From a virus: 64,000 bases of DNA. The position numbers and the translations under genes are program-made. Below the pieces are notes generated by a model, which was given only the letters and a program-made list of their open reading frames with translations, was not told where the DNA came from and did no database searches. The stretch is from IMG/VR virus record IMGVR_UViG_3300037294_000405, positions 62,001 through 126,000 of that record; one strand, 5' to 3'. Shown here in pieces: positions 29,873 through 60,305 of the stretch (position 1 is its first letter; every line of letters begins with the position of its first letter).

Positions 29873-31027
29873 ATGATAAAAATAGAAAAATTAAACGAAA
29901 AAATACCAGTATACGATATTACTGTTGAGGATAACCATAATTTTTTTGGTAATGATATATTAGTACATAATTGTTCGGAAATTATGGAGACGACCAATGC
30001 TGAAACAACAGCTATTTGTACACTTACTAGCATCCCAGTTCAAAAATATATTATAGATGGAGTTTACGACTTCATAGAATTAGGTAAAGTAGCACGTTCA
30101 ATAACAAAATCATTAAACATAGCTTTAGAGGTTAACGAATATTCAACACCAGAAGGTAGAAAAGGTGGTTTAGAACAAAGAGCATTAGGTATTGGTATAC
30201 AAGGTTTAGCAGATGTGTTTGCTATATTAAAATTAGCGTTCACTGGTGAAATAGCTAGACAATTAAATAAAGACATATTTGAAACGATTTATTTTAATGC
30301 TTTAAGTGAATCTTGTGCTTTAGCTAAAAAAACTGGGTTAACGTATGATGGTTACGAGGGCTCACCAATTTCTGAAGGCATTTTCCAATGGCAAATGTGG
30401 GGGTTGACTGAAGATAATTTATCTGGTATGCATGATTGGAAAGGGTTAAGAAAAGACATTAAAAAATATGGTGTTAGAAACTCTTTAGTTACAACATGCC
30501 CACCAACAGCTAGTTCAGCTCGTGTAATTGGTTCGAACGAAGCTTTCGAACCGTTCACTTCAAATCTTTATGTTCGAAGAGTGACTGGTGGTGAATTTGC
30601 TATGGTAAACAAACATTTAGTTAAAGATTTAGAGTCGGAAGGTCTATGGAATAGAGAAATTCTTAGTGAATTGATAAAAAATAATGGTAGTGTTCAAAAC
30701 ATACCAGTTATTAGTTTAGAGATGAAAGAAAGATATAAAACAGTTTGGGAGATTTCACAAAAAGCGTTAATTGAAATGTCTGCTGATAGAGCACCATTCA
30801 TTGACCAATCACAAAGTCTTAATATTTTCTTCAGCACACCTACCGTTGGTAAATTAACGACATCACATAATTTGTCTTGGAAATTAGGTCTTAAAACTGG
30901 TCAGTATTATTTAAGGAGTGAGTCCGTTGATATGAAAGCTAAACATTTAGCTATTGATATGACAAAACAAAAACAAGTAGAAAAACCTACCGAAAGTCAA
31001 TTTGAGTGTGTGGGTTGTTCAAGTTAA
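29873..31027 (+). CDS. nrdA: Ribonucleotide reductase large subunit, C-intein fused to C-terminal half
   Basis: 384 aa. Residues 1-33 are a C-intein: KIPVYDITVEDNHNFFGNDI ending LVHN, followed by +1 Cys34. Cys34 begins CSEIMETTNAET, the NrdA segment with the thiyl-radical Cys and its partner Glu (C439 and E441 in E. coli numbering). The rest completes the barrel: RALGIGIQGLADVFA, TTCPPTASSARVIGSNEAFE with the P-loop-like finger, and a C-terminal FECVGCSS redox Cys pair. N- and C-halves are in the same frame, 797 bases apart. A terminator follows. Confidence 0.92.
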   Translation: MIKIEKLNEKIPVYDITVEDNHNFFGNDILVHNCSEIMETTNAETTAICTLTSIPVQKYIIDGVYDFIELGKVARSITKSLNIALEVNEYSTPEGRKGGLEQRALGIGIQGLADVFAILKLAFTGEIARQLNKDIFETIYFNALSESCALAKKTGLTYDGYEGSPISEGIFQWQMWGLTEDNLSGMHDWKGLRKDIKKYGVRNSLVTTCPPTASSARVIGSNEAFEPFTSNLYVRRVTGGEFAMVNKHLVKDLESEGLWNREILSELIKNNGSVQNIPVISLEMKERYKTVWEISQKALIEMSADRAPFIDQSQSLNIFFSTPTVGKLTTSHNLSWKLGLKTGQYYLRSESVDMKAKHLAIDMTKQKQVEKPTESQFECVGCSS

Positions 31028-31129: not shown

Positions 31130-31879
31130 ATGGCAAACGGTAAATACATAAACATAAATTACCCCAATATATACATATATGCTTTGGTTTCAGAAGAAGA
31201 CCAAAAAAACATTAAATATATTGGAGTAACTTCTAAAACACCTTCAAATCGATTAAGTAATCATATTTATGAAGCAAAAAAAACACCTAATAAAACTGAT
31301 AAAACAAAATGGATTACATCTGTAAATTATAAGTTAAAACAAATAATTTTAGATATTGTTGATTTTGAAACAGCATATTTTTGGGAACAATATTGGATAT
31401 CACAATTTAAAACATGGGGTTTTGTTTTAGTAAATTCAAATAATGGTGGTGGTGGTTTAGGTAAAAGAAGCATTGAATTTTCAGCTTGGTTAAGTAATAG
31501 GAATAAAGGTAATAAATATAATTTAGGTAAAACACATTCTGAAGATACTAAATTAAAAATGAGTAATAAAAAACTTGGTAAACCATCACCTAGAAAAGGT
31601 ATTGAAGTGTTAGAAAAAACCAAAGAAAAACAATCTAAAGCTAAAATAGGTAGTGTTGGTAATGCAACTGGTTTTAAACATACAGAAGAAACTAAAAATA
31701 AGAAAAGAAAAAAAGTTTTACAAATAAGTATTAATGGTCAAATAATAAATGAATTTACATCAGTATCTGATGTCTCAAATTATTTTTCTGTAAATATTTC
31801 TACTATATCAAAAAGATTAGATAAAAATAAAGAATATAAAGGTTTTATATTCAAAACTAAAATAGAAAACAATGGCTAA
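31130..31879 (+). CDS. GIY-YIG homing endonuclease inserted at the start of gene 25
   Basis: 249 aa. The first 12 residues, MANGKYININYP, are those of the following gp25 (MANGRFININYP) and are not part of the nuclease. The GIY-YIG core follows: YIYALVSEEDQKNIKYIGVT, then RLSNH and a Glu in FETAYFWEQYWIS. NUMOD3-like repeats (NLGKTHSEDTKLKMSNKKLG) and a C-terminal NUMOD1-type region (VSDVSNYFSVNISTISKRLD) bind DNA. The gene has taken over the native translation start, and gene 25 begins again eight bases before its end. An 18-bp identical sequence flanks the insert (31148-31165 and 31890-31907). Confidence 0.88.
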   Translation: MANGKYININYPNIYIYALVSEEDQKNIKYIGVTSKTPSNRLSNHIYEAKKTPNKTDKTKWITSVNYKLKQIILDIVDFETAYFWEQYWISQFKTWGFVLVNSNNGGGGLGKRSIEFSAWLSNRNKGNKYNLGKTHSEDTKLKMSNKKLGKPSPRKGIEVLEKTKEKQSKAKIGSVGNATGFKHTEETKNKKRKKVLQISINGQIINEFTSVSDVSNYFSVNISTISKRLDKNKEYKGFIFKTKIENNG

Positions 31880-32258
31880 TGGTCGCTTTATAAACATAAA
31901 TTACCCCTTTAAGGATAGTAACAAAGGTTTTTTCTTAGATTTGAATGATGAAGATAGTCAAGCGATAAAAGCCGACCTTCTACATATAATATTAACTAGA
32001 AAAGGTCAAAGACTTTATAAACCAGACTTTGGTACTGATTTATTAAAATTTATCTTTGAACCACAAGATGGAATGACGTTAAATGCCGTTAAAGAAGAAA
32101 TTAAATCAGTAGTAAAACTTTATTTACCAAAATTACAATTAGATGAAATTTTAGTTGAAGAAGCTACCGAAAGCGAATACGCTGCTGTGTTCACTTTAAA
32201 ATATACAATAACAGATGCTGTTTTTACAACATCAGACATAGTAGTAGTAAAACTATAA
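31872..32258 (+). CDS. Baseplate wedge protein (gp25-like)
   Basis: 128 aa, typical for the gp25/GpW lysozyme-like fold family. Characteristic parts are DSQAIKADLLHIILTRKGQR, LYKPDFGTDLLKFIFEP and the C-terminal YTITDAVFTTSDIVVV. gp25 joins the wedge to the sheath start in T4. Its first 12 codons duplicate, with synonymous and conservative changes, the opening of the preceding endonuclease gene, so the 5' end has been rebuilt by the insert. It ends eight bases before the gp6-like gene, the standard neighbour. Confidence 0.9.
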   Translation: MANGRFININYPFKDSNKGFFLDLNDEDSQAIKADLLHIILTRKGQRLYKPDFGTDLLKFIFEPQDGMTLNAVKEEIKSVVKLYLPKLQLDEILVEEATESEYAAVFTLKYTITDAVFTTSDIVVVKL

Positions 32259-43455: not shown

Positions 43456-46455
43456 ATGAGTGATAACATTAAAGTAGCTGGATATGTAAAAAAAGAAACT
43501 TACAACGGTAATATAGAGTATAGAAATTTTAGCCCAGACCTAGTTGGTCTTCAACTAACTAGTGATGAGGCGTTGTTTACTATGGGTAATTTTTCTATCA
43601 CTACAAATATGGACCCTAAAAAAGATAAGTCTTATAATACGGGTAAATTTTCTGATTATTATTCTTTAGAAAACTTAAATTTAACGGTTCAACAAACACA
43701 AACCCTTTTAAATAACAACGCTGGTGTCATATTAAATTTAGATAAAACTAAATTAAAATATTACGCTATGTTTGGTTCTTTGGTTGAATTTGTGCGTGTT
43801 AGTTTAGAAGAAATAATAACTAAATGGCCAGCATCTTTATTTTTATCTCCTTTCATTATTAATGATTTAGGGCAATCAATAGTTGATAACACATATTCTG
43901 ATTATTCTTATGATTTAATTTCTAATTCAGCAACTTTTAAAATAAACACATCATTAATCACCAACAAATTCAATATTAATTATTTAAAAAATGGAACTAT
44001 TGTTAACACATTTAATGAAACAAACGATATTAGAAATTTAACAGTTAACTATGGTTCGTATGTTATATTAAGAGATAATTTAGAATATGATGTGATAGGT
44101 TTTACTGGTTCTACTGAATTAACTAATGATTATATTTATTTTAAAGTTAAAGGTGATGTTTTTTCTGGTCAACAAACAACAATTAATTACCATATAAAAC
44201 CTAGTAAGATAAATGAAGATTTATTTTTCAATGGTTTAAGTAATTTTGAAGGTTATTTATTAAATAGAAAATCATCTCCAAAATATAAAGCAACTTTTAA
44301 TTCACCTATTATTTCAGAACAAGGTATAGTACTTTACGTAGATAAAGATATAATTTGGCCAGTATCTGATGGGTATAATATTGATTTTGATAGTGGTGAA
44401 TATATTGATTATGTTTCACAATTACTAAAAATTTCAGAAGATAATGACTTAAGTAATAGTAATTTAATGAATAGATTCTTAGTGTCTGAGTCTATTTCTG
44501 ATTTTGATACGACTCCAGTTCATTTAGCTGAAGAACATTTGGATACTTCTGGTCAAAAAATTAATAAAACACTTAGCATTTATGGTAGGTCTTTTGATGA
44601 TATAAACACATTTATTTACAGTATTTCATTTGCGAATGTTGTTACTTATAATAAACAAGATAACATGCCAGACAAATACTTAAAAGATTTGGCAAACGTT
44701 TTGGGATGGGATTTAATTTCTTCTATTTTAGAAAATAATTTACTGAAGAATTACGTTAAAACTTCAAAGTCAATATATTCTGGTGAAGAAGTTGGTTTAA
44801 CCGACATTGAAGCTGATGTAGAATTATGGAGAAGAATTATATTAAACTCTCCTTGGATATGGAAATCGAAAGGTGCACGTAAATCTGTTGAGTTTTTACT
44901 TAAATTTATTGGTACACCAAAAGGTTTAATTGAGTTTAATGAGTATGTTTATTTAGCGGATGCACCTATAAATACTGAACTTTTCCAAAAAATATTAGAG
45001 TTAAATAATTTAGATAATGATTTGAGTCTTTATCCAATAGATAATGATGGGTACCCTAAATTTTTCGAAGATAACCCAAACATGTATTTCCAATCCGATG
45101 GTCTTTGGTATAGGGAAACTGGTGGAAGCGGTTCAACAATAGATATTCTAAACGGAAATAACCCACACGCTGGCCCATACGATGGTGGTAGTAAATACAT
45201 CAATCAATTAAGAAAACTTATACCTAATTTTTCGGCAGTAACTATTACTGCTGAAACAGTATCTAGTGGGTCAACTAATTTGTTTATTAATTATGATTTA
45301 GGTCAAATTACTGATTATGTTGGTGATACTTATGTGGATGTTATTAACACTGATGGTACAAACTTAAGTGATTGTATTGTATATACTGCCGAAATAGTAA
45401 AAGACCCAATACCAGAAGATGTTTTAACAGCTTGTGGTTGTCCACGTGGTTTAGGTGATGATGCTTTGAGTGTTTGTGTTAAGAAAATAGAAAAACCACA
45501 ACCAAAACCATGTAGTGGGTTTATTTTCACACCAAAAAAAAATACCGATACAGGTTATTATGTTTTCAGTTATTACCAATATAACCAAGATGGTTCAGTG
45601 TTCGAATCAAATGGTCAACCCATAATTAGAACGTCTAATTTTACTGACAGAGAATGTTGTAAAGCACTAAACGGAAAATCAGTATATAGTGAATTTGTCG
45701 ACCCAATAACTAATAATGTGGAAAGCGGTTATGTTTGTTGTTTTAGTGAAAAATGTGGGTGTAGTACATCATGTAATTGGGTGTTAAATAATGAACCATT
45801 ATATTTAGATAACAACGCTTTTTTATCGTTTATAACTCTTTACGGTGCTGGAGTAAACAAAGTGACTTTACCAGACGCATCAGCTTGCCCAGTTGGATGG
45901 ACAACACCTGTGACAAATATAGTGGACCCATTTACAAATGAAATAGGTGTTGGTTGTAAATTAACAACATATGGTTTACAAAATTACCAAACATTAGTAA
46001 CTTTATTTGCGAATAGAGCTGATAAGGGTGATTGTTGTAATTTTAATTGGCCAACATTATCAGCACCATCTATTGTTTATAGAATATATTCTAAGGTAGT
46101 TTATCCTAACAAAGATAATTCACAAATGATGGTTTATGAGTTTAACAACGCAACAATAGAACAAGTTAAGTGTGTAACGTTAAATTATGGAACATTATAT
46201 GTTAGTAGCGGTATAATCGGTCAAACTCCATTACCATGGAGTTTTACACCAATTACTGTGGGTACACAATTATATGTTTCAAACACTTTAGGTGCTGCAC
46301 CATATAATACATTAAACGGTAACTTTTCAATAGATGTTACTAGTGTAAATAGTACAATAAATACTGGTTTACAATTAAACCAAAAATACGTTATTCAAGT
46401 TAATAACGGTGTGGTTACAAACATTATTAATTTTAATACGCTACCAGCGTGTTAA
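43456..46455 (+). CDS. Large tail protein (999 aa) with gpI-like domain and Cys-rich end
   Basis: Residues about 390-500 read KYLKDLANVLGWDLISSILE, ADVELWRRIILNSPWIWKSK and GARKSVEFLLKFIGTPKGLI, the pattern of phage tail protein I (a wedge component: a conserved helix, then K-G-T/A-x-x-x-V/L-x-x-x-L). Earlier residues are beta-rich. From about 650 on, the protein is Cys-rich with paired Cys (TACGCPRGLG, DRECCKALNG, YVCCFSEKCGCSTSC), suggesting disulfide or metal-bound knots in a receptor-facing region. The final 130 residues are another beta domain. Wedge role from the gpI part; the Cys-rich function is unknown. Confidence 0.65.
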   Translation: MSDNIKVAGYVKKETYNGNIEYRNFSPDLVGLQLTSDEALFTMGNFSITTNMDPKKDKSYNTGKFSDYYSLENLNLTVQQTQTLLNNNAGVILNLDKTKLKYYAMFGSLVEFVRVSLEEIITKWPASLFLSPFIINDLGQSIVDNTYSDYSYDLISNSATFKINTSLITNKFNINYLKNGTIVNTFNETNDIRNLTVNYGSYVILRDNLEYDVIGFTGSTELTNDYIYFKVKGDVFSGQQTTINYHIKPSKINEDLFFNGLSNFEGYLLNRKSSPKYKATFNSPIISEQGIVLYVDKDIIWPVSDGYNIDFDSGEYIDYVSQLLKISEDNDLSNSNLMNRFLVSESISDFDTTPVHLAEEHLDTSGQKINKTLSIYGRSFDDINTFIYSISFANVVTYNKQDNMPDKYLKDLANVLGWDLISSILENNLLKNYVKTSKSIYSGEEVGLTDIEADVELWRRIILNSPWIWKSKGARKSVEFLLKFIGTPKGLIEFNEYVYLADAPINTELFQKILELNNLDNDLSLYPIDNDGYPKFFEDNPNMYFQSDGLWYRETGGSGSTIDILNGNNPHAGPYDGGSKYINQLRKLIPNFSAVTITAETVSSGSTNLFINYDLGQITDYVGDTYVDVINTDGTNLSDCIVYTAEIVKDPIPEDVLTACGCPRGLGDDALSVCVKKIEKPQPKPCSGFIFTPKKNTDTGYYVFSYYQYNQDGSVFESNGQPIIRTSNFTDRECCKALNGKSVYSEFVDPITNNVESGYVCCFSEKCGCSTSCNWVLNNEPLYLDNNAFLSFITLYGAGVNKVTLPDASACPVGWTTPVTNIVDPFTNEIGVGCKLTTYGLQNYQTLVTLFANRADKGDCCNFNWPTLSAPSIVYRIYSKVVYPNKDNSQMMVYEFNNATIEQVKCVTLNYGTLYVSSGIIGQTPLPWSFTPITVGTQLYVSNTLGAAPYNTLNGNFSIDVTSVNSTINTGLQLNQKYVIQVNNGVVTNIINFNTLPAC

Positions 46456-46470
46456 AAAAAAATTAAAGAA

Positions 46471-46478
46471 TATTTATA
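46471..46478 (+). promoter_or_regulatory. TATTTATA motif, candidate late promoter
   Basis: GAATATTTATAA ends 12 bases before the ATG at 46491. Confidence 0.45.
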
Positions 46479-46490
46479 ATAAAAAATAAA

Positions 46491-49112
46491 ATGGGAATAA
46501 ACCTAACAGATATAATCAGAGGGTGTAATGTATTTTGGAGTTCCGTTATAGCGCAAAATGGTTTGGTTAAAAATACAGACGGCACTATTTCTGTATATTT
46601 ACCCAATAGTAATGGTGCACCATCACCAACATATGTATCGCAACAATGTTGTAGTGTTTTGGCTGAAATAACAAGCGAACCATATTATTATGATTTAGAC
46701 GCTCAAAAATGTAGATGGTCTGATAAGTCTAGTATAGATTGTGCGGATAACCAACCAATTAAAATAGTCTTAAATCCAAAGGGTAATGACGGAACTATTT
46801 TCTATCTTCAAGATAATGAAAAATGTTCTTTGGTTGTCGATTTTGATTATTTGTTTAAACTAGACTGCGAAATGCTTAGTAAAGTATTATCACAAACTAG
46901 TGTTAGTAACCCAATTTTACACAACCAAATTTTTATATTACAACAACAAATTGATGAACAAACAGTTAGGTGTGAGGAGATAAACACGCAGTTACTTTAT
47001 TTGCTAGACCAATATGATAAAACAAGTTATTCGATAACATGCGATAGATTCCCATCTATGGCAATCATTGATTTGGAAGCAATCGAATATTTGCCAAGTG
47101 AAATTATAAAACCAACACAAACACAAAAAGAGCCTTTTACTAGAACTGGGTTTAACGGAGGGTTAGCACCTTTTTCTTTTCCTAGGATAAAACACACTAG
47201 TGTTAATTTTTGTTTAACAACTGAGGGTCTTACTATTTGGCAAAATATTTTGGGTCCTAATAAATACCAACAGTTTTTAAATGGTGACCCATCATCTTAT
47301 ACATGCGAAGATGTCATCAATATATACAATCAAAATCAAACATTATTATCAATAACCAGAAACGTTAACCCACTTATTTTAGAATGTACAACGCTTTTTG
47401 GTACTAAAACAGAAATTAAAAATAAAATAGATGCACTTGTAGTTAAACAAACTGAATGTAATGATTTATTGCTAACCTTACAAACAGAATTGGATAATTT
47501 ACTAACGCAGCAACAAGACTTAACTGTTAGTTGTAGTACACCGATTGGTGTTATGGAAAATTTAAGTGTTTCTATGAGTATAGATATTGTCGATGATGAC
47601 GGTAATCTAACAACAGCTTATGAAGATAATTTTTTTCCATCTATAGGTGCTGGTAATTTATATAATTATTTAACTTCCAACCCAACAAATAGTGGTTTCT
47701 TTGTTTGTGGTGAACCTAGCGCTAACGAATCTTGGGCTACTGGGTGCACACCATTAAGTTACCCAGAATTATCACCACAAATTCAAGGTGATAATGTTAT
47801 TGATGGTCAAACAAACGTTTCAAACTGTTTAAGGATTAGAGATTACATTTTACAAGAGTTATTTAACCAATCTGAATTGGGTGGACAAACAAATGGCCAA
47901 TCAGTGTTTAATAATTCATTATCGCCAACAATATTATCTTCTTCGTGGTTACAATACACCAATTTTATTGATGATGTTGACGTAATTAATATGATTACCA
48001 ACAAAAAAATTAAGTTAAGTCTTAATATTAATAGTAGTTGTGGTGATTTTTGTGTTATGATTGATAGGATTTCGTTAACAAAACAATGTGTTGATGTTGA
48101 CGGTACTAATCTGTTTATCAGTCAATCACCAGGTTTTAATATAACTAGAGTTGTCGACAATAAAAAATCTTGGGTGAATAACACAGATTTAGTAAATAGA
48201 GAATTTGATATTAAAAACGTTAGTGGTTTTAATAGTATTAGACAAACAGATTATGATGTATTTGATGAAAGATTGGTAATCAACACCAAAGAAATTGATT
48301 TAGATATGAATATCGCTTCTGCGGTGGAACATGATGTTTGGTGTTATTTATCAGATAACCCATGTTTATTGACTGGTGTAACATATTGTGACCCATGCGT
48401 TCTTTGTGGTGATAAAACTTTTCAAGATGACGAATGTTTTAATTTTCAAGATTCTAACGTTTATGATTTTATGGACAGCACGTCAAATAATATCCAATTA
48501 TTTTCACAATCATATTGTTGTGGTGACAACCAAATAGATTTTACTAGTTTGTTTACAACTGATTTATCAACAATTAAAACAATTGATAAATTCCAAAATT
48601 TATTGGTTTCCGAATTAATAAATGTTAAAAACAGACAAACAATATCTGGGTATCCAACACTTAAAGCACTATACGAAAGATACTTAAATAGTTTAGATTA
48701 TTGTATTACAAAAAGTTCTGCTTTTGACTATTATACAATGGACCAATTTGCTAATCTTATAGGTGATTATTGGGTTGATGTAATCGAACAAGTTATTCCA
48801 GCGACAACAATTTGGGGTAGTGTTAAAATTTATACCAATACAATATTTGACCAACAGAAGTTTAAATATAAACAATATTCCTCATTATTCGGTAGTAACC
48901 CTTTTGAATATTTAAACGTATTAAGTCCGATAAATGGAGTTTCTGGTCAGTGTCAAAACATCGATGTTGTTACAAGTGTTATTTCAACACCAAAAGAAGG
49001 TGAGTTAAGACCAAAACCAGTATATAATCATTTAGATAAACTTTGTGTTTCGCAGATGAATTGGGGTTCTGAATTTATAGGTAGCGTGGCTATTATAGAG
49101 ATTAAAGATTAA
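46491..49112 (+). CDS. Cys-rich structural protein, 873 aa
   Basis: Unknown family. The N-terminus has the same paired-Cys module as the preceding protein (YVSQQCCSVLAEITSEPYYY, then AQKCRW). Two coiled-coil stretches contain Cys (FILQQQIDEQTVRCEEINTQ near residue 150; VKQTECNDLLLTLQTELDNL near 325). Residues 510-640 hold KIKLSLNINSSCGDFCVMID and CDPCVLCGDKTFQDDECF. The end is compact, finishing with LCVSQMNWGSEFIGSVAIIE. Coiled coils plus Cys-rich knots suggest a trimeric or elongated tail appendage. It precedes the fibre genes, in keeping with an adhesion apparatus; this is inference. Confidence 0.62.
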   Translation: MGINLTDIIRGCNVFWSSVIAQNGLVKNTDGTISVYLPNSNGAPSPTYVSQQCCSVLAEITSEPYYYDLDAQKCRWSDKSSIDCADNQPIKIVLNPKGNDGTIFYLQDNEKCSLVVDFDYLFKLDCEMLSKVLSQTSVSNPILHNQIFILQQQIDEQTVRCEEINTQLLYLLDQYDKTSYSITCDRFPSMAIIDLEAIEYLPSEIIKPTQTQKEPFTRTGFNGGLAPFSFPRIKHTSVNFCLTTEGLTIWQNILGPNKYQQFLNGDPSSYTCEDVINIYNQNQTLLSITRNVNPLILECTTLFGTKTEIKNKIDALVVKQTECNDLLLTLQTELDNLLTQQQDLTVSCSTPIGVMENLSVSMSIDIVDDDGNLTTAYEDNFFPSIGAGNLYNYLTSNPTNSGFFVCGEPSANESWATGCTPLSYPELSPQIQGDNVIDGQTNVSNCLRIRDYILQELFNQSELGGQTNGQSVFNNSLSPTILSSSWLQYTNFIDDVDVINMITNKKIKLSLNINSSCGDFCVMIDRISLTKQCVDVDGTNLFISQSPGFNITRVVDNKKSWVNNTDLVNREFDIKNVSGFNSIRQTDYDVFDERLVINTKEIDLDMNIASAVEHDVWCYLSDNPCLLTGVTYCDPCVLCGDKTFQDDECFNFQDSNVYDFMDSTSNNIQLFSQSYCCGDNQIDFTSLFTTDLSTIKTIDKFQNLLVSELINVKNRQTISGYPTLKALYERYLNSLDYCITKSSAFDYYTMDQFANLIGDYWVDVIEQVIPATTIWGSVKIYTNTIFDQQKFKYKQYSSLFGSNPFEYLNVLSPINGVSGQCQNIDVVTSVISTPKEGELRPKPVYNHLDKLCVSQMNWGSEFIGSVAIIEIKD

Positions 49113-55430: not shown

Positions 55431-55493
55431 ATGATTAAAGAACCAGAATTTTTATTGGCGTTAGATGTATCAACATCAAAATTATTTAATTAA
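55431..55493 (+). pseudogene. 5' remnant of RuvC-like resolvase gene
   Basis: ATG is followed by 19 further codons, IKEPEFLLALDVSTSK then LFN and a stop. The first 16 residues match the start of the intact resolvase at 56431 (KEPEFLLSLDVSTST), at both protein and DNA level with about 85% identity by eye. The rest of the gene is missing here; its 3' end lies at 57901-58074. The break falls just after the catalytic Asp motif LDVSTS. Confidence 0.75.
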
Positions 55494-55529
55494 AGTGTCA
55501 TTAAAATACAACTTTTTATTTTATCGTGA

Positions 55530-55537
55530 TATTTATA
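55530..55537 (+). promoter_or_regulatory. TATTTATA motif before ribbon-helix-helix gene
   Basis: GTGATATTTATAA ends 15 bases before the ATG at 55553. The motif lies inside the mobile cassette. Confidence 0.45.
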
Positions 55538-55552
55538 ATAAACAAAAATATT

Positions 55553-55702
55553 ATGGCAAGACCAAAATTAAAAGAAGAAGATAAAAAAATTAGACTAGGT
55601 GTAACAATATCTAGAGAACTATATAAAAAAATTGATTCGGAAACAAACAATAAATCTGAATTTATTGAGAAACTATTAACTAAATATTTTTATGAAAAGT
55701 AA
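55553..55702 (+). CDS. Small ribbon-helix-helix (CopG/Arc-type) protein
   Basis: 49 aa: MARPKLKEEDKKIRLGVTIS, RELYKKIDSETNNKSEFIEK, then LLTKYFYEK. A basic N-terminus, a short strand (RLGVTIS) and two helices with the N-x-S-E-F-I-E turn are the ribbon-helix-helix signature. Such proteins bind DNA as dimers through the strand and usually repress their own operon. It overlaps the following GIY-YIG gene by 11 bases, so it may control that endonuclease. The TATTTATA motif lies 15 bases upstream. Confidence 0.75.
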   Translation: MARPKLKEEDKKIRLGVTISRELYKKIDSETNNKSEFIEKLLTKYFYEK

Positions 55703-56441
55703 TGGTATTTATAGGATAGTTAATAATATAAACGGTAAAGTTTATATTGGAAGTACTGGAAGCAAAGGTGGTTTTAAAAAAAGATGGTCATATCATTTAA
55801 CTGATTTGAAACAAAATAAACACCATTCCAGACATTTACAAAGAGCTTGGAATAAATATGGTGAAAATTCATTTGTATTTGGAATAATAGAAATAATTGA
55901 AAATTTTACTAAAGAAACGTTATTAATTAGAGAACAATATTATTTAGATTTATATAAATCATATGATGTTAATTTAGGTTATAATATATGTAAGAATGCT
56001 GGTAGTTCTTTAGGTGTTAAAAAAACACCAGAACAAATAAAACAAATGTCTGAGTTAAGAAAAGGAAAACCAATACCATGGTTGAATAATGGTCAACCAA
56101 GAAGTAAAGAGCATATAGAAAATTTAAAAAATGCCTGTATTGGTAAAATATCTGAGAAATTAGATAAGACATATGAAGAAATTTACGGTGAGGAAAAAGC
56201 TATAAAATTAAAGAAAAAATTAAGTGAATCACATATTGGGGTTAATACTGGTGAAAAACACCCGAAAGCAAAATTAGTACAACAATTTGATATGGATAAT
56301 AATTTAATTAACGAATTCAGTTGTTCAATTACAGCTAGCGAAGTATTAAATATACCAGCAAAAAGTATAAGAATGTGTTGTGGTGGGTTTGCAAAAACAG
56401 CATATGGTTTTAAATGGAAATATAAAAATTATGAAAAATAA
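55692..56441 (+). CDS. GIY-YIG homing endonuclease in resolvase locus
   Basis: 249 aa. GIY-YIG core: NGIYRIVNNINGKVYIGSTG, KRWSYHL, then REQYYLDLYKSYD with the conserved Glu. NUMOD3-like segments follow (TPEQIKQMSELRKGKPIPWL, SESHIGVNTGEKHPKAKLVQ) and the C-terminus is a NUMOD1-type domain (ITASEVLNIPAKSIRMCCGG, YGFKWKYKN). The end overlaps the resolvase start by 11 bases. Together with the ribbon-helix-helix gene, the resolvase and the HNH gene it forms a cassette inserted into an older resolvase gene. Confidence 0.87.
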   Translation: MKSNGIYRIVNNINGKVYIGSTGSKGGFKKRWSYHLTDLKQNKHHSRHLQRAWNKYGENSFVFGIIEIIENFTKETLLIREQYYLDLYKSYDVNLGYNICKNAGSSLGVKKTPEQIKQMSELRKGKPIPWLNNGQPRSKEHIENLKNACIGKISEKLDKTYEEIYGEEKAIKLKKKLSESHIGVNTGEKHPKAKLVQQFDMDNNLINEFSCSITASEVLNIPAKSIRMCCGGFAKTAYGFKWKYKNYEK

Positions 56442-57093
56442 AATAGAAAAAGAACCAGAATTTCTTTTAAGTCTGGATGTATCAACTTCAACCATTGGTA
56501 TTGCATTATTTGAAGATATGGGTAACAAGGGTGAATTAAAACTTTTACACCATGTATCACCAAAAGTTAAACCAAAACCAGAAACAAAAACGGAAGAATT
56601 GTTTAGGAAAATTGAAATATTTGAAAATGAATTTCTTTCACACTATAGTGATTTTGGTATTACTAGGGTTGTTATCGAAGAACCACTACTTCAGTCAAAC
56701 AATGTTTACACGATTGCCACCTTATTAAGGTTTAATGGTATGATTTCAAAATCTATTTACGATACTTTAGGTATTGTACCAGAGTTCATCTCTTCTTATG
56801 ATGCACGTAAATACGCATTTCCAGAGCTTATGGACGTTAGAAAAGCAAAAAAGGATGGAACACCTTTAGCTGATAAACAAATAGCTAAAAACGCTCCTGT
56901 GTTGTTTGGGGGTTATCCATTTAATGTTGACAAGAAAATGGTGATTTTCGAAAATGTATGTGATTTAGAACCGCAAATAAAATGGATGTTAGATAAAAAA
57001 AATAAACTAAAAAAAGAAAATTTCGACATGAGTGATGCCTATGCTTGTGGGTTAGCTTGGTTTAACCTTAGAAAGATAAAAAGAGATAATTAA
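56431..57093 (+). CDS. RuvC-like Holliday junction resolvase (intact copy)
   Basis: 220 aa with the RNase H fold of RuvC: first strand LLSLDVSTSTIGIALFED (catalytic Asp about residue 17), RVVIEEPLLQSNN (Glu about 85), an FISSYDARKYAFPEL segment, and a final DMSDAYACGLAW with Asp. T4 resolves branches with gp49, an unrelated fold; RuvC-like resolvases are used by many other phages. The ATG at 56431 lies in the overlap with the preceding endonuclease gene. The gene is a divergent second copy: the 5' and 3' ends of another copy flank the cassette. The last four residues (KRDN) are encoded in a palindrome shared with the converging HNH gene. Confidence 0.78.
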   Translation: MKNKIEKEPEFLLSLDVSTSTIGIALFEDMGNKGELKLLHHVSPKVKPKPETKTEELFRKIEIFENEFLSHYSDFGITRVVIEEPLLQSNNVYTIATLLRFNGMISKSIYDTLGIVPEFISSYDARKYAFPELMDVRKAKKDGTPLADKQIAKNAPVLFGGYPFNVDKKMVIFENVCDLEPQIKWMLDKKNKLKKENFDMSDAYACGLAWFNLRKIKRDN

Positions 57094-57105
57094 TTATCTC
57101 TTTTT
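57078..57105. terminator. 28-bp perfect palindrome, bidirectional terminator
   Basis: AAAAAGAGATAATT is followed by its exact complement. It lies over the converging ends of the resolvase and HNH genes, has T runs in both directions, and codes for KRDN plus stop on both strands. Confidence 0.8.
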
Positions 57106-57836
57106 ATTACTCTATTTATATAACCACATAATGGTTTAAGGTTAGTATAGTGGTTAAGTTTAATTAATTCGTCTTCACACATTGCTTTTGATTGTGGTAT
57201 GATATGGTCAATATCCCAACCATAATTTTTTGTCCCATTATATATTCCTCTATTATCCCAAGTCATCCATGATTCCCAAAGTGATTCAATATGTTGTTTA
57301 AAATATTCATAAGAACATCCTAATATTTCATGTGACCTAGATTTTTTAGTAAACCCATTCTTTTTTAATGCGCTGTTAATCATTCGATTCATATAACATC
57401 TTAAATTAAAAACTGGGTCGATTTTTTTTCTTTCTTTTGTTTTTTCATTTCGAATCTGTTTATATTGTTCGTTATACTCTTTGTAGTATTCTGGATTTTT
57501 ATTATTCCATTCTTTTTTATAATTCGGGTTATTAATAACCCATTCTTTTTGCTTTTCTTTTATGTTAAGAATATTTTCCTCTCTATATTTTTTTGATGTC
57601 TCTTTTATATTTTCTATGTTATTATAATAATAACTTTTACTTTTTTGTTTAATTATTTCGCTGTTATCCTTATAATATTCTTTAATTGTTTCGCTGTTAT
57701 CCTTATAATATTCTTTAGAATAATTCGAATTACATATTTTACATATTGTTCTTAATCCATCTTTAGTAATTTTATGTTTACCAAATTCTGTTATTGGTTT
57801 TAATACTTCACATTTTTTACATTTTTTAATTTCCAT
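57090..57836 (-). CDS. HNH homing endonuclease (minus strand)
   Basis: 248 aa. Residues 5-40 hold a zinc-knuckle pair (CKKCEVL... and TICKICNSN). A long charged helical linker follows, with tandem YYKDNSE(T/I)IK repeats that are also 30-bp DNA repeats. The HNH nuclease is at the C-terminus: NYGWDIDHIIPQSKAM, then LIKLNHYTNLKPLC. It converges on the resolvase gene with a four-base overlap of stop codons. The TATTTATA motif is 13 bases before its ATG. It is the right-hand gene of the resolvase cassette. Confidence 0.86.
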   Translation of the reverse strand: MEIKKCKKCEVLKPITEFGKHKITKDGLRTICKICNSNYSKEYYKDNSETIKEYYKDNSEIIKQKSKSYYYNNIENIKETSKKYREENILNIKEKQKEWVINNPNYKKEWNNKNPEYYKEYNEQYKQIRNEKTKERKKIDPVFNLRCYMNRMINSALKKNGFTKKSRSHEILGCSYEYFKQHIESLWESWMTWDNRGIYNGTKNYGWDIDHIIPQSKAMCEDELIKLNHYTNLKPLCGYINRVIKRDN

Positions 57837-57849
57837 AATCTTGTTTTAT

Positions 57850-57857
57850 TATAAATA
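57850..57857 (-). promoter_or_regulatory. TATTTATA motif (minus strand) before HNH gene
   Basis: On the minus strand ATATTTATAATAAAA ends 13 bases before the HNH ATG at 57836, the same spacing as on the plus strand. Confidence 0.45.
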
Positions 57858-57900
57858 TATTGAAATTACAAAAAAACATATTTTTTTAAGTTTGTGATAC

Positions 57901-58074
57901 AAGAAATATGTTTTATGGGAAAAAGTTGCTGAATTAGAACCACAAGTTACTTGGTTTTATGATAAAAACAACAAATTAAAAAAGGAAACATTCGATACAT
58001 CTGACGCATACGTTTGTGCTATAGGTTATATGAATAAAATAGGTCTTTGGCCTAGGCAACCAAATCAATTCTAA
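57901..58074 (+). pseudogene. 3' remnant of RuvC-like resolvase gene
   Basis: An open frame without start codes for 57 residues, KKYVLWEKVAELEPQVTWFY, KKETFDTSDAYVCAIGY and an end LWPRQPNQF. It aligns with the last third of the intact copy (KKMVIFENVCDLEPQIKW, KKENFDMSDAYACGLAW). With the 55431 fragment it gives the ends of the original gene; about 145 internal codons are missing. The catalytic Asp of DTSDAY is still present. Confidence 0.8.
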
Positions 58075-58115: not shown

Positions 58116-59072
58116 ATGGCAATGTTATTAGTTAACATATTAGAAAGTTTTTTAGGTGAAACTAGAAAACATAATGAAGACACTGGGCAAATCGCATTTG
58201 ATTGTCCAGCATGTTCTGCTGAAAAAGGTTTAATAGATGGTGATGGTAAAGGTAATCTAGAGATTAACTATCAAATGAACAAGTTTAAATGTTGGTCATG
58301 TCATGAAATTAACCATATGCGTGGCCCAGTTTTAAAACTTTTAAAAAAATACGCAACACCTAAAAATATTCGAGATTATTTATTGGTAAAACCAGATGCT
58401 GAATTTATTACCAATATAGAACGTGAACGAGTATTATTAACCCTACCAGAAGGGTATAAACGACTGTCTGATTGCACAGAAAAAGACTACAAAGCAAATT
58501 TAGCGTTAAATTATTTAAAAACCAGAGGTATTACAGATGATATCATAGATGAATACGATATTGGTTATACTTATCGTGGTAAATTCTTCAATAGGATAAT
58601 TATTCCGTCTTACGATTCGGAAGGTGAATTAAATTATTTTATCGCTAGATGGTTTGATAAAGAATACACAAAATTAAAGTATCTAAATCCAGACGCTGAA
58701 AAACAAGAAATCATATTTAACGAAGGGCGATTGAACTTAGATGCAACAATTTATTTAGTTGAGGGCGCAACTGACCACATAGTAACACCAAATTCTATTC
58801 CATTACTAGGTAAATTCCTTTCAAATAATCTTTTAGAGTTATTGCATGATAAGTCAGCTGGTTTTGTTGTGATTGTTTTAGATGATGATGCGTGGGAAGA
58901 TGCTAAAATTTTGTATCAACAACTAAATTTTGGTAACTTAAGAGGTAGAATAAAATTAGTTAGACCACCAGAGGGTTATGACCCATCTAAGATTTATGAA
59001 AATTTAGGTAATAAGGGTATGACTAAACTTCTTATGGGTGCTTTTAAACCAGAGGATAAAGATGTATATTAA
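58116..59072 (+). CDS. DNA primase (gp61 / DnaG-type)
   Basis: 318 aa. A zinc ribbon is visible: DCPACSAEKGL (about residues 30-33) and FKCWSCHEINH (about 59-62). The catalytic part includes LNYLKTRGITDDIIDEYDIG and a Toprim domain with YLVEGATDHIVTP (Glu about 216) and FVVIVLDDDAWEDAKI (Asp cluster about 250). It makes RNA primers for lagging-strand synthesis with the gp41-like helicase at 25068. The size is close to T4 gp61 (342 aa). It converges on the GNAT gene with a four-base overlap. Confidence 0.85.
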   Translation: MAMLLVNILESFLGETRKHNEDTGQIAFDCPACSAEKGLIDGDGKGNLEINYQMNKFKCWSCHEINHMRGPVLKLLKKYATPKNIRDYLLVKPDAEFITNIERERVLLTLPEGYKRLSDCTEKDYKANLALNYLKTRGITDDIIDEYDIGYTYRGKFFNRIIIPSYDSEGELNYFIARWFDKEYTKLKYLNPDAEKQEIIFNEGRLNLDATIYLVEGATDHIVTPNSIPLLGKFLSNNLLELLHDKSAGFVVIVLDDDAWEDAKILYQQLNFGNLRGRIKLVRPPEGYDPSKIYENLGNKGMTKLLMGAFKPEDKDVY

Positions 59073-59477: not shown

Positions 59478-59508
59478 TTGCAATATAGAATAAAATTTCG
59501 TACCTTTG
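59478..59508 (+). promoter_or_regulatory. Host-type promoter TTG-N20-TACCTTTG
   Basis: TTG at 59478 and TACCTTTG at 59501, 20 bases apart, with the ATG at 59523. It is divergent from the GNAT start and shares the same 67-base gap. Confidence 0.72.
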
Positions 59509-59522
59509 TAATAAAAGTAAAT

Positions 59523-60305
59523 ATGAGTAAAGCTAAATTATGGGAAGGTCCAGTATTTCTAGAACCAATAGAACATAAATACCATCACAGGGTAACTGGT
59601 AAGACTTATAAGTCAGTTACGACAACCCTTTCATCGATTGAACCTCACTTTGATTCAGAGGCGGTTTCAGCTGCTATCGTAAACCAATTAGATAACGTTA
59701 AACAAGAACGTTATATCGGTTTAACACAACAACAAATACTTGATTTTTGGCAAATGCTTAATGATGAAGCGAATGTATATGGTACTAAGGTCCATGACAT
59801 CGTTGAGCGTTATTTATTAGCTAACAAATGGTATTTTCCAACAGATGATGAAGAAGGTGAGTTTGAACAATGCGTTATAGATGGTTTTAATGCGTTAAAA
59901 ATTGATGAGGGTGTGGCAATGTGGCCAGAACGTATATTGTTTTCTGAACAATACGAGTTAGCTGGTATGTCTGACCTTATTATAGATATTGATGAAAAAT
60001 ACTTTGATGTGTGGGATTGGAAAACAAATAGAGAGTTTAACTTCTTTAACCAATACGGTAATGAAACGTTGTTTAAACCTTTTGACCACTTACAAGCGTG
60101 TCAATGGTCAATTTATACGCTTCAGTTAAGTGTTTATACATATATGTATGAATTAGAGTTTACTGGGCGTAAATGTAGACAAATATGTATTGGGTATTGG
60201 GATAAAGAGAAAAAAACTTTTGAAAAAATTCAAATTATGTATTTGAAACATGAAGCTAAAAAGCTTATTGAGATGCATCACTATAACTTAATGAAAAACT
60301 TATAA
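59523..60305 (+). CDS. PD-(D/E)XK exonuclease (RecB/Cas4-like)
   Basis: 260 aa. The ATG at 59523 is used because the promoter lies at 59478-59508. Core motifs: YGTKVHDIVERYLLANKWY with the leading His, SEQYELAGMSDLIIDIDEKY (Asp), VWDWKTNREFNF (D-x-K), and HLQACQWSIYTLQLSVYTYM (Q-x-x-x-Y). These are the RecB-family nuclease signature. In this cluster of Dda, gp47 and gp46 genes it probably processes DNA ends or recombination intermediates, or helps host DNA breakdown. Confidence 0.75.
   Translation: MSKAKLWEGPVFLEPIEHKYHHRVTGKTYKSVTTTLSSIEPHFDSEAVSAAIVNQLDNVKQERYIGLTQQQILDFWQMLNDEANVYGTKVHDIVERYLLANKWYFPTDDEEGEFEQCVIDGFNALKIDEGVAMWPERILFSEQYELAGMSDLIIDIDEKYFDVWDWKTNREFNFFNQYGNETLFKPFDHLQACQWSIYTLQLSVYTYMYELEFTGRKCRQICIGYWDKEKKTFEKIQIMYLKHEAKKLIEMHHYNLMKNL

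What the first reader, a model, noticed from the sequence alone, without database searches (positions are those of the whole stretch)
55431..58074. Resolvase locus rebuilt by a mobile cassette: two ends of an old RuvC gene flank a new intact RuvC copy
The first 16 codons (55431) and last 57 codons (57901-58074) of a RuvC-like gene remain, while between them lie a ribbon-helix-helix gene, GIY-YIG, an intact but divergent RuvC, and an HNH gene. The insert carries its own functional copy of the gene it destroys, bracketed by nucleases. This looks like homing with replacement of an essential allele rather than a simple insertion; the break is right after the catalytic LDVSTS codons, a conserved target.
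Basis: partly seen in the sequence, partly recalled or inferred. Interest (0 to 1): 0.85.

Follow-up and report, generated by a model that had tools for sequence, protein, structure and literature searches.

The report
Nuclease cassettes that rebuild broken genes
In this uncultured phage, two DNA-cutting selfish genes have inserted into the two ends of one DNA-repair gene, and each brought a differently spelled replacement for the end it displaced, so the gene stays whole; near-identical phages with and without such inserts show this is a recurrent, natural version of the engineered "home-and-rescue" gene drive.

Summary
Window 55431-58074 holds a 16-codon 5' remnant, RHH, GIY-YIG, an intact RuvC, a convergent HNH gene and a 57-codon 3' remnant. 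Dozens of relatives have one uninterrupted RuvC between the same flanking genes.

The insert is not one cassette carrying a complete new RuvC. 5' remnant + RuvC middle + 3' remnant align without internal gaps to empty relatives' RuvC (84-89%), better than the intact RuvC does (74-80%). So the middle is the resident gene. Two separate elements each inserted near one end, and each brought a substitute end encoding a similar peptide in different codons.

Near-isogenic contigs show this directly at other genes. In L009/L010, 100% identical flanks are interrupted by [recoded last 19 codons + HNH], followed by the native 3' end verbatim. In L005/L059, [RHH/GIY + recoded first codons] sits in the primase. 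The window has a third such cassette (gp25-like gene, 31130-32258) and its record a fourth. I found at least nine target ends, with GIY-YIG, HNH and DUF723-type nucleases.

The design is known from fungal mitochondria (mORFs). I found no phage report in the open literature searched. Nuclease activity is inferred, not tested.

The parts
55431..55493 (+). 5' remnant of the resident RuvC: native start and first 16 codons (MIKEPEFLLALDVSTS), then 4 codons of cassette DNA and a stop
   Evidence: clusters with native RuvC 5' ends of empty relatives
55553..55702 (+). ribbon-helix-helix-like small protein of the 5' cassette (49 aa); it accompanies GIY-YIG in the RuvC and primase 5' cassettes
   Evidence: no Pfam/PHROG search hit was obtained, so RHH is by sequence look only
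55692..56441 (+). GIY-YIG homing-endonuclease gene of the 5' cassette; its 3' end overlaps the restored RuvC start by 11 nt
   Evidence: Pfam GIY-YIG 35.7 bits, PHROG homing endonuclease
56431..56490 (+). substitute (recoded) 5' end of RuvC brought by the GIY cassette
   Evidence: 0.95 nt identity to the substitute end in L083, 0.77 to its own remnant
56491..56931 (+). resident middle of RuvC
56932..57093 (+). substitute 3' end of RuvC brought by the HNH cassette (58% aa, 66% nt to the remnant)
   Evidence: L006 has the same type of end plus an HNH scar
57075..57108 (.). perfect hairpin with U-runs on both strands over the two convergent stop codons; probable shared bidirectional terminator
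   Evidence: fold z = -5.7 and -5.2
57090..57836 (-). HNH / endonuclease VII-type gene of the 3' cassette, convergent with RuvC
   Evidence: PHROG endonuclease VII 8e-15; Pfam HNH just below cut-off
57901..58074 (+). 3' remnant of the resident RuvC (57 codons plus stop)
   Evidence: 87-96% aa to many empty relatives against 58% to the substitute end
58116..59072 (+). DnaG-type primase downstream (flank); itself a cassette target in L008, L012, L025, L059 (5') and L030 (3')
31130..31879 (+). third cassette: GIY-YIG-like gene fused in frame to the native first 12 codons (MANGKYININYP) of a gp25-like gene
   Evidence: NUMOD3 4e-7; sister L164 is empty here
31872..32258 (+). gp25-like baseplate gene rebuilt with a recoded start (MANGRFININYP)
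   Evidence: first 36 nt 72% to sister L164, rest 96%; remnant 92%; Pfam gp25 7e-12

Best explanation
These are intron-less homing cassettes that carry a substitute gene end. Each consists of a homing-endonuclease gene plus a short segment encoding the beginning (5' type) or the end (3' type) of one particular phage gene, in different codons. The nuclease cuts the uninterrupted gene at a conserved spot near that end. Break repair copies the cassette in, and the substitute end joins in frame to the rest of the resident gene, so the protein stays whole without splicing. The displaced native end is left behind as a dead remnant. The occupied allele should resist cutting because the remnant lacks half of the site and the substitute end spells it differently. 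In the window this happened twice in RuvC (RHH+GIY at codon 16, HNH near codon 167) and once in a gp25-like gene. Shown: clean insertion, divergent/recoded ends, resident middle, recurrence, shared substitute ends between phages. Inferred: cleavage specificity, protection by recoding, repair-driven spread.
For: 1) Near-isogenic pairs. L009 (empty) and L010 (occupied) are identical up to L009:8402. L010 then has the last 19 codons of nuc at 72% nt identity and an HNH gene, followed by the native 3' end verbatim, with no target DNA lost. L005/L059 and L009/L008 show the same at the primase 5' end. 2) The window's sister L164 (95-96%) is empty at gp25. In the window the remnant is 92%, the substitute end 72% and the body 96% identical to L164. 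3) N-rem+middle+C-rem matches the empty relatives' RuvC at 84-89% with no internal gaps; the hybrid RuvC is 74-80%. The middle tracks the flanks. 4) Substitute ends belong to cassettes, not genomes. Window versus L083 substitute 5' ends are 0.95 identical, but only 0.77 to their own remnants. In L025 versus L059, GIY is 0.89 and the substitute end 0.85, but primase body 0.69 and up408 0.67. 5) Recurrence at nine or more target ends with three nuclease families.
Against: No cleavage assay. For RuvC itself no near-identical empty allele was found, so its junctions are inferred from 74-83% (nt) relatives. The RuvC 3' substitute end differs from the remnant in 42% of residues, so it comes from another allele and is not merely recoded. 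Some occupied loci (L016 primase) show no remnant. A set of cultured-phage HEGs examined (T4-like, Bacillus, Klebsiella, Flavobacterium) lacked clear remnants.
Confidence: 0.87

Rival explanations
1. Whole-gene replacement: one cassette GIY-RuvC'-HNH from another phage replaced the middle of the resident RuvC.
For: Architecture of the window alone; both ends of the intact copy differ from the remnants.
Against: The middle of RuvC is the resident's: composite fit 84-89% against 74-80%, r=0.92 with flanks. The 5' element exists without an HNH gene (L006, L047, L079, L083), and one-end exchange is direct in the near-isogenic pairs.
Confidence: 0.06
2. Free-standing HEGs inserted beside the gene; the remnants are scars of illegitimate end joining with a divergent donor, so the extra ends are by-products and not part of the mobile unit.
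For: Could explain how such elements first arose; substitute ends look like ends of divergent orthologues (RuvC 3': 58% aa).
Against: The same substitute end travels with the same nuclease into different genomes at the same codon, which needs one creation event followed by homing of the whole unit.
Confidence: 0.05
3. Group I intron, intein or trans-splicing arrangement that rejoins the remnants.
For: Introns and inteins with HEGs are common in phages; an in-frame insert sits in nuc of L003.
Against: No Rfam intron in the window or 8 relatives; the hybrid RuvC is a complete ORF with its own start and stop; both remnants duplicate parts already present in it.
Confidence: 0.01
4. Metagenome assembly chimera.
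For: All genomes of this clade are uncultured contigs.
Against: Same structures in independent assemblies (L003/L004, L008/L054, L030/L031, L172/L173) and at different genes.
Confidence: 0.01

Closest known systems
Fungal mitochondrial mobile ORF elements (mORFs) in atp6, atp9, cox2, nad3 of Glomus and atp6 of Allomyces (PMC3630166)
   Same: Endonuclease ORF plus a foreign gene end fused in frame; the native end is left downstream as a duplicate; the substitute end is mostly synonymous (atp6: 63.5% nt, 91% aa to native).
   Different: Mitochondrial, LAGLIDADG or GIY-YIG, 3' ends. Here: phage; GIY-YIG, HNH and DUF723-type; both 5' and 3' ends, even both ends of one gene; several per genome.
'Introns with N-terminal duplication' in Tremella fuciformis mitochondria (PMC7315562)
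   Same: 5'-end duplication and exchange of the gene's beginning through element gain and loss.
   Different: Described as (predicted) introns of fungal mtDNA. Here no intron was found, and the nuclease reading frame is sometimes fused to the native start codons.
Free-standing phage homing endonucleases (T4 seg/mob; review PMC2988022)
   Same: GIY-YIG and HNH nucleases without introns, double-strand-break repair with co-conversion.
   Different: The terms 'duplicat', 'recod', 'truncat' and 'in-frame' do not occur in that review's main text; here the nuclease sits inside a gene and brings a substitute gene end.
Synthetic home-and-rescue / cleave-and-rescue gene drives (PMC7968924, PMC7951863)
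   Same: Nuclease targets an essential gene and the element carries a resistant rescue (works like; details from general knowledge and the abstracts).
   Different: Engineered, CRISPR-based, in animals; here natural and the rescue is only the missing end.

Membership tests
End-replacing endonuclease elements (mORF type) | Endonuclease ORF between the rebuilt gene and a displaced native gene end | tested here: met
End-replacing endonuclease elements (mORF type) | Native end identical or close to uninterrupted relatives; substitute end divergent | tested here: met
End-replacing endonuclease elements (mORF type) | Substitute end in frame with the resident gene | tested here: met
   single ORF 56431-57093, also nuc, primase, gp25-like
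End-replacing endonuclease elements (mORF type) | Encoded endonuclease cleaves the element-free allele | not testable with these tools
   needs biochemistry
Free-standing phage homing endonuclease | GIY-YIG or HNH catalytic domain, no intron or intein around it | tested here: met
Free-standing phage homing endonuclease | Located between genes, leaving neighbours uninterrupted | tested here: not met
   inserted inside RuvC, primase, nuc and gp25-like reading frames
Mobile group I intron / intein | Recognisable self-splicing RNA or splicing domain restoring the interrupted product | tested here: not met
   no Rfam match; the gene is already complete
Transposon insertion with target-site duplication | Identical fixed-length duplicated target | tested here: not met
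   duplicated ends are 53-81% identical in nt and of varying length

The most novel reading that the evidence does not exclude
A widespread and apparently undescribed class of phage mobile elements: natural home-and-rescue drives in which unrelated nuclease families (GIY-YIG, HNH, DUF723-type) have each adopted a recoded gene end as a built-in rescue. They occur several to a genome, some hijack the target's start codon or share its terminator, and they steadily rewrite the ends of essential phage genes. Extension to crAss-like phages rests on one clear case (L091, assigned by gene resemblance) and two short matches (cr6_1, cr125_1).
Probability: 0.6. Interest if true: 0.85.

Novelty: new variant of a known kind. 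Interest (0 to 1): 0.76.

Why it matters
It shows a third way, besides introns and inteins, for a selfish nuclease to sit inside a gene it would otherwise destroy: bring a substitute end. It gives a natural precedent for engineered home-and-rescue drives, with sequence evidence of how they spread, get stuck and decay. It explains mosaic essential genes, spurious short ORFs and odd N- or C-termini in phage annotation. The empty/occupied allele pairs make the protection-by-recoding idea directly testable in vitro.

Tried and rejected
tblastn of RuvC against 50,697 phage records found nothing, so there is no close cultured relative. An HNH scan of IMG/VR gave only one relative. HEGs of cultured or named phages (Bacillus FADO and PJN02, EcS1, elemo, JBD44, crAss001, tikkala, FpV4, KP13-7, Lak-B4) showed no clear remnants. 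The self-duplication scan also reports paralogous tail genes (20-45% identity) and tandem HEGs, which I discarded. Target-site duplication, intron, assembly chimera and whole-gene replacement were considered and rejected. A 45% hit at 31130 looked like noise until sister L164 showed it was a third cassette.

Full report
OBSERVATION. The window lies in a 155,282-base IMG/VR virus record (G000:C1:62001-126000). Family assignments: GIY-YIG (Pfam 35.7 bits), endonuclease VII/HNH (PHROG 8e-15; Pfam HNH just under cut-off), RuvC-like resolvase (PHROG 3e-9), primase (PHROG 5e-34).

EMPTY ALLELES. A scan of IMG/VR with the intact RuvC returned 80 loci. In most, one uninterrupted RuvC lies between the same upstream tail gene and the same primase. 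N remnant + RuvC middle + C remnant, read as one protein, matches the RuvC of empty relatives over full length without internal gaps (L023 191/215, L024 188/215, L014 188/220, L035 181/216, L028 180/215, L036 179/214). The actual hybrid RuvC matches them less well (74-80%). Identity of the middle part to the window follows the flanking genes across relatives (r = 0.92 with the tail gene, 0.90 with the primase). That of the substitute 3' end does not (r = 0.42 with the primase). The middle is therefore the resident gene, and only the two ends are foreign.

NEAR-ISOGENIC PAIRS. L009 and L010 agree at 99.3-99.9% on both sides of an insert at the 3' end of the PD-(D/E)XK nuclease gene (nuc). Identity is 100% over the last kilobase up to L009:8402. 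L010 then reads the last 19 codons of nuc at 72% nucleotide but 84% amino-acid identity, a convergent HNH gene, and the native 3' end letter for letter. L005/L059 and L009/L008 show the mirror image at the primase 5' end: native first codons, an RHH/GIY-YIG pair (here on the opposite strand), then the primase with recoded first codons, while the rest stays ~99-100% (L005/L059) or 96% (L008) identical. The window's own sister (L164, 95-96%) is empty at a gp25-like baseplate gene. In the window the native first 12 codons are fused in frame to a GIY-YIG-like gene, which is followed by the gp25-like gene with a recoded start (remnant 92%, substitute 72%, body 96% to L164).

RECURRENCE. Distinct target ends found: RuvC 5' (window, L083, L006, L047, L079; degraded in L003); RuvC 3' (window; HNH scar in L006); primase 5' (L008, L012, L025, L059); primase 3' (L030); nuc 3' (L008, L010); tail gene up711 5' (L030, nuclease fused to the native start); tail gene up408 3' (L016); gp25-like 5' (window, L172, L173, L220); and a 379-aa gene 3' in the same record outside the window (G000:C1 ~46062-48216; L301). 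At that last site the remnant ends LERGAKEATDLNTSMKYRPLGFWVY exactly as in empty relatives L274 and L275, while the rebuilt gene ends LERGALEAGYLNTSMKYRPLGFWVY. L161, L241, L116 and L091 add unrelated targets. The record thus carries four such cassettes. In crAss-like genomes cr6_1 and cr125_1 the GIY gene shares only 4-7 starting residues with the downstream gene, which is suggestive only.

CASSETTE IDENTITY. Substitute ends go with cassettes, not with host genomes. The window and L083 substitute RuvC 5' ends are 0.95 identical, yet 0.77 to their own remnants; the window remnant matches most empty relatives at 0.85-0.90. Between L025 and L059 the GIY gene is 0.89 and the substitute end 0.85 identical, against 0.67-0.69 for the upstream tail gene and the primase body. 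This indicates horizontal movement of nuclease and substitute end as one unit.

ANATOMY. In 5'-type cassettes on the gene's strand the substitute start codon overlaps the end of the nuclease gene (window RuvC 11 nt, gp25-like 8 nt), which suggests translational coupling. In 3'-type HNH cassettes the nuclease is convergent. In the window the two stop codons lie in one perfect hairpin with U-runs on both strands (z = -5.7 and -5.2), a likely shared terminator. The break points lie at conserved motifs: RuvC LDVSTS, primase HNEDTGQ before the zinc-binding cysteines.

MECHANISM (inferred from established homing biology). The nuclease cuts the uninterrupted gene at the conserved motif. Repair from an occupied genome uses the upstream sequence plus remnant and the gene body as homology arms and installs nuclease plus substitute end. 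Neither copy of the end now carries the whole site. Cleavage and protection were not tested.

DECAY. L003/L004, the closest relatives, have lost most of the GIY gene by a deletion between two GTTA repeats. They carry a RuvC whose 3' end switches from substitute-like to native-like at ..GCTTGTG|CTATAGG, consistent with loss of an HNH cassette by recombination between the duplicated ends. L006 keeps the substitute 3' end and only a short scar of the HNH gene. Substitute-like 3' ends also occur in several loci without an adjacent HNH gene (L005, L021, L037, L042), which may be footprints of past visits.

KNOWN WORK. Fungal mitochondrial mORFs have this architecture at 3' ends (PMC3630166, which also cites the Allomyces atp6 case), and N-terminal duplications are reported in Tremella (PMC7315562). 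Searches for a phage equivalent in the open PubMed Central library found none. A T4 review (PMC2988022) and an ICP1 study (PMC10448857) do not describe it in the passages searched. Subscription literature was not searched. The working principle matches engineered home-and-rescue drives (PMC7968924).

Noticed in passing
G000:C1 about 46062-48216 (L265:10062-12216): Fourth end-replacing cassette of the same record: a DUF723-like nuclease ORF convergent with a 379-aa gene whose last ~20 codons are substituted, with the native end left as remnant.
   Followed up: yes
window 29873-31027: ORF begins with an intein-like C-terminal end (..DNHNFFGNDILVHN|CSEIM) inside what looks like a ribonucleotide reductase gene.
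   Followed up: no
L003:8125-9909, L006, L007, L074: The orthologue of window gene 59478-60305 carries a 1005-bp in-frame, intein-like insert after residue 182; the window copy is uninterrupted.
   Followed up: partly
L016:8165-10007, L020:8703-10560, L042:10411-11338: SbcD-like gene (window 61679) split into two ORFs with extra tails, with or without a HEG-like ORF between: a gene-in-pieces arrangement of unclear function.
   Followed up: no
L030:1608-2609: DUF723-type nuclease ORF fused in frame to the native first 25 codons of the tail gene, so it would use that gene's own start signal.
   Followed up: yes
L091:1671-4716; NC_055900.1 and NC_055894.1: crAss-like genomes: GIY-YIG gene begins with the first 16 (L091) or 4-7 (cr6_1, cr125_1) residues of the downstream virion protein; possible same kind of cassette.
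   Followed up: partly
80 RuvC loci L003-L082: RuvC C-termini fall into two sequence types across relatives, poorly correlated with genome kinship and mostly without a nuclease gene nearby; possible footprints of lost cassettes.
   Followed up: partly
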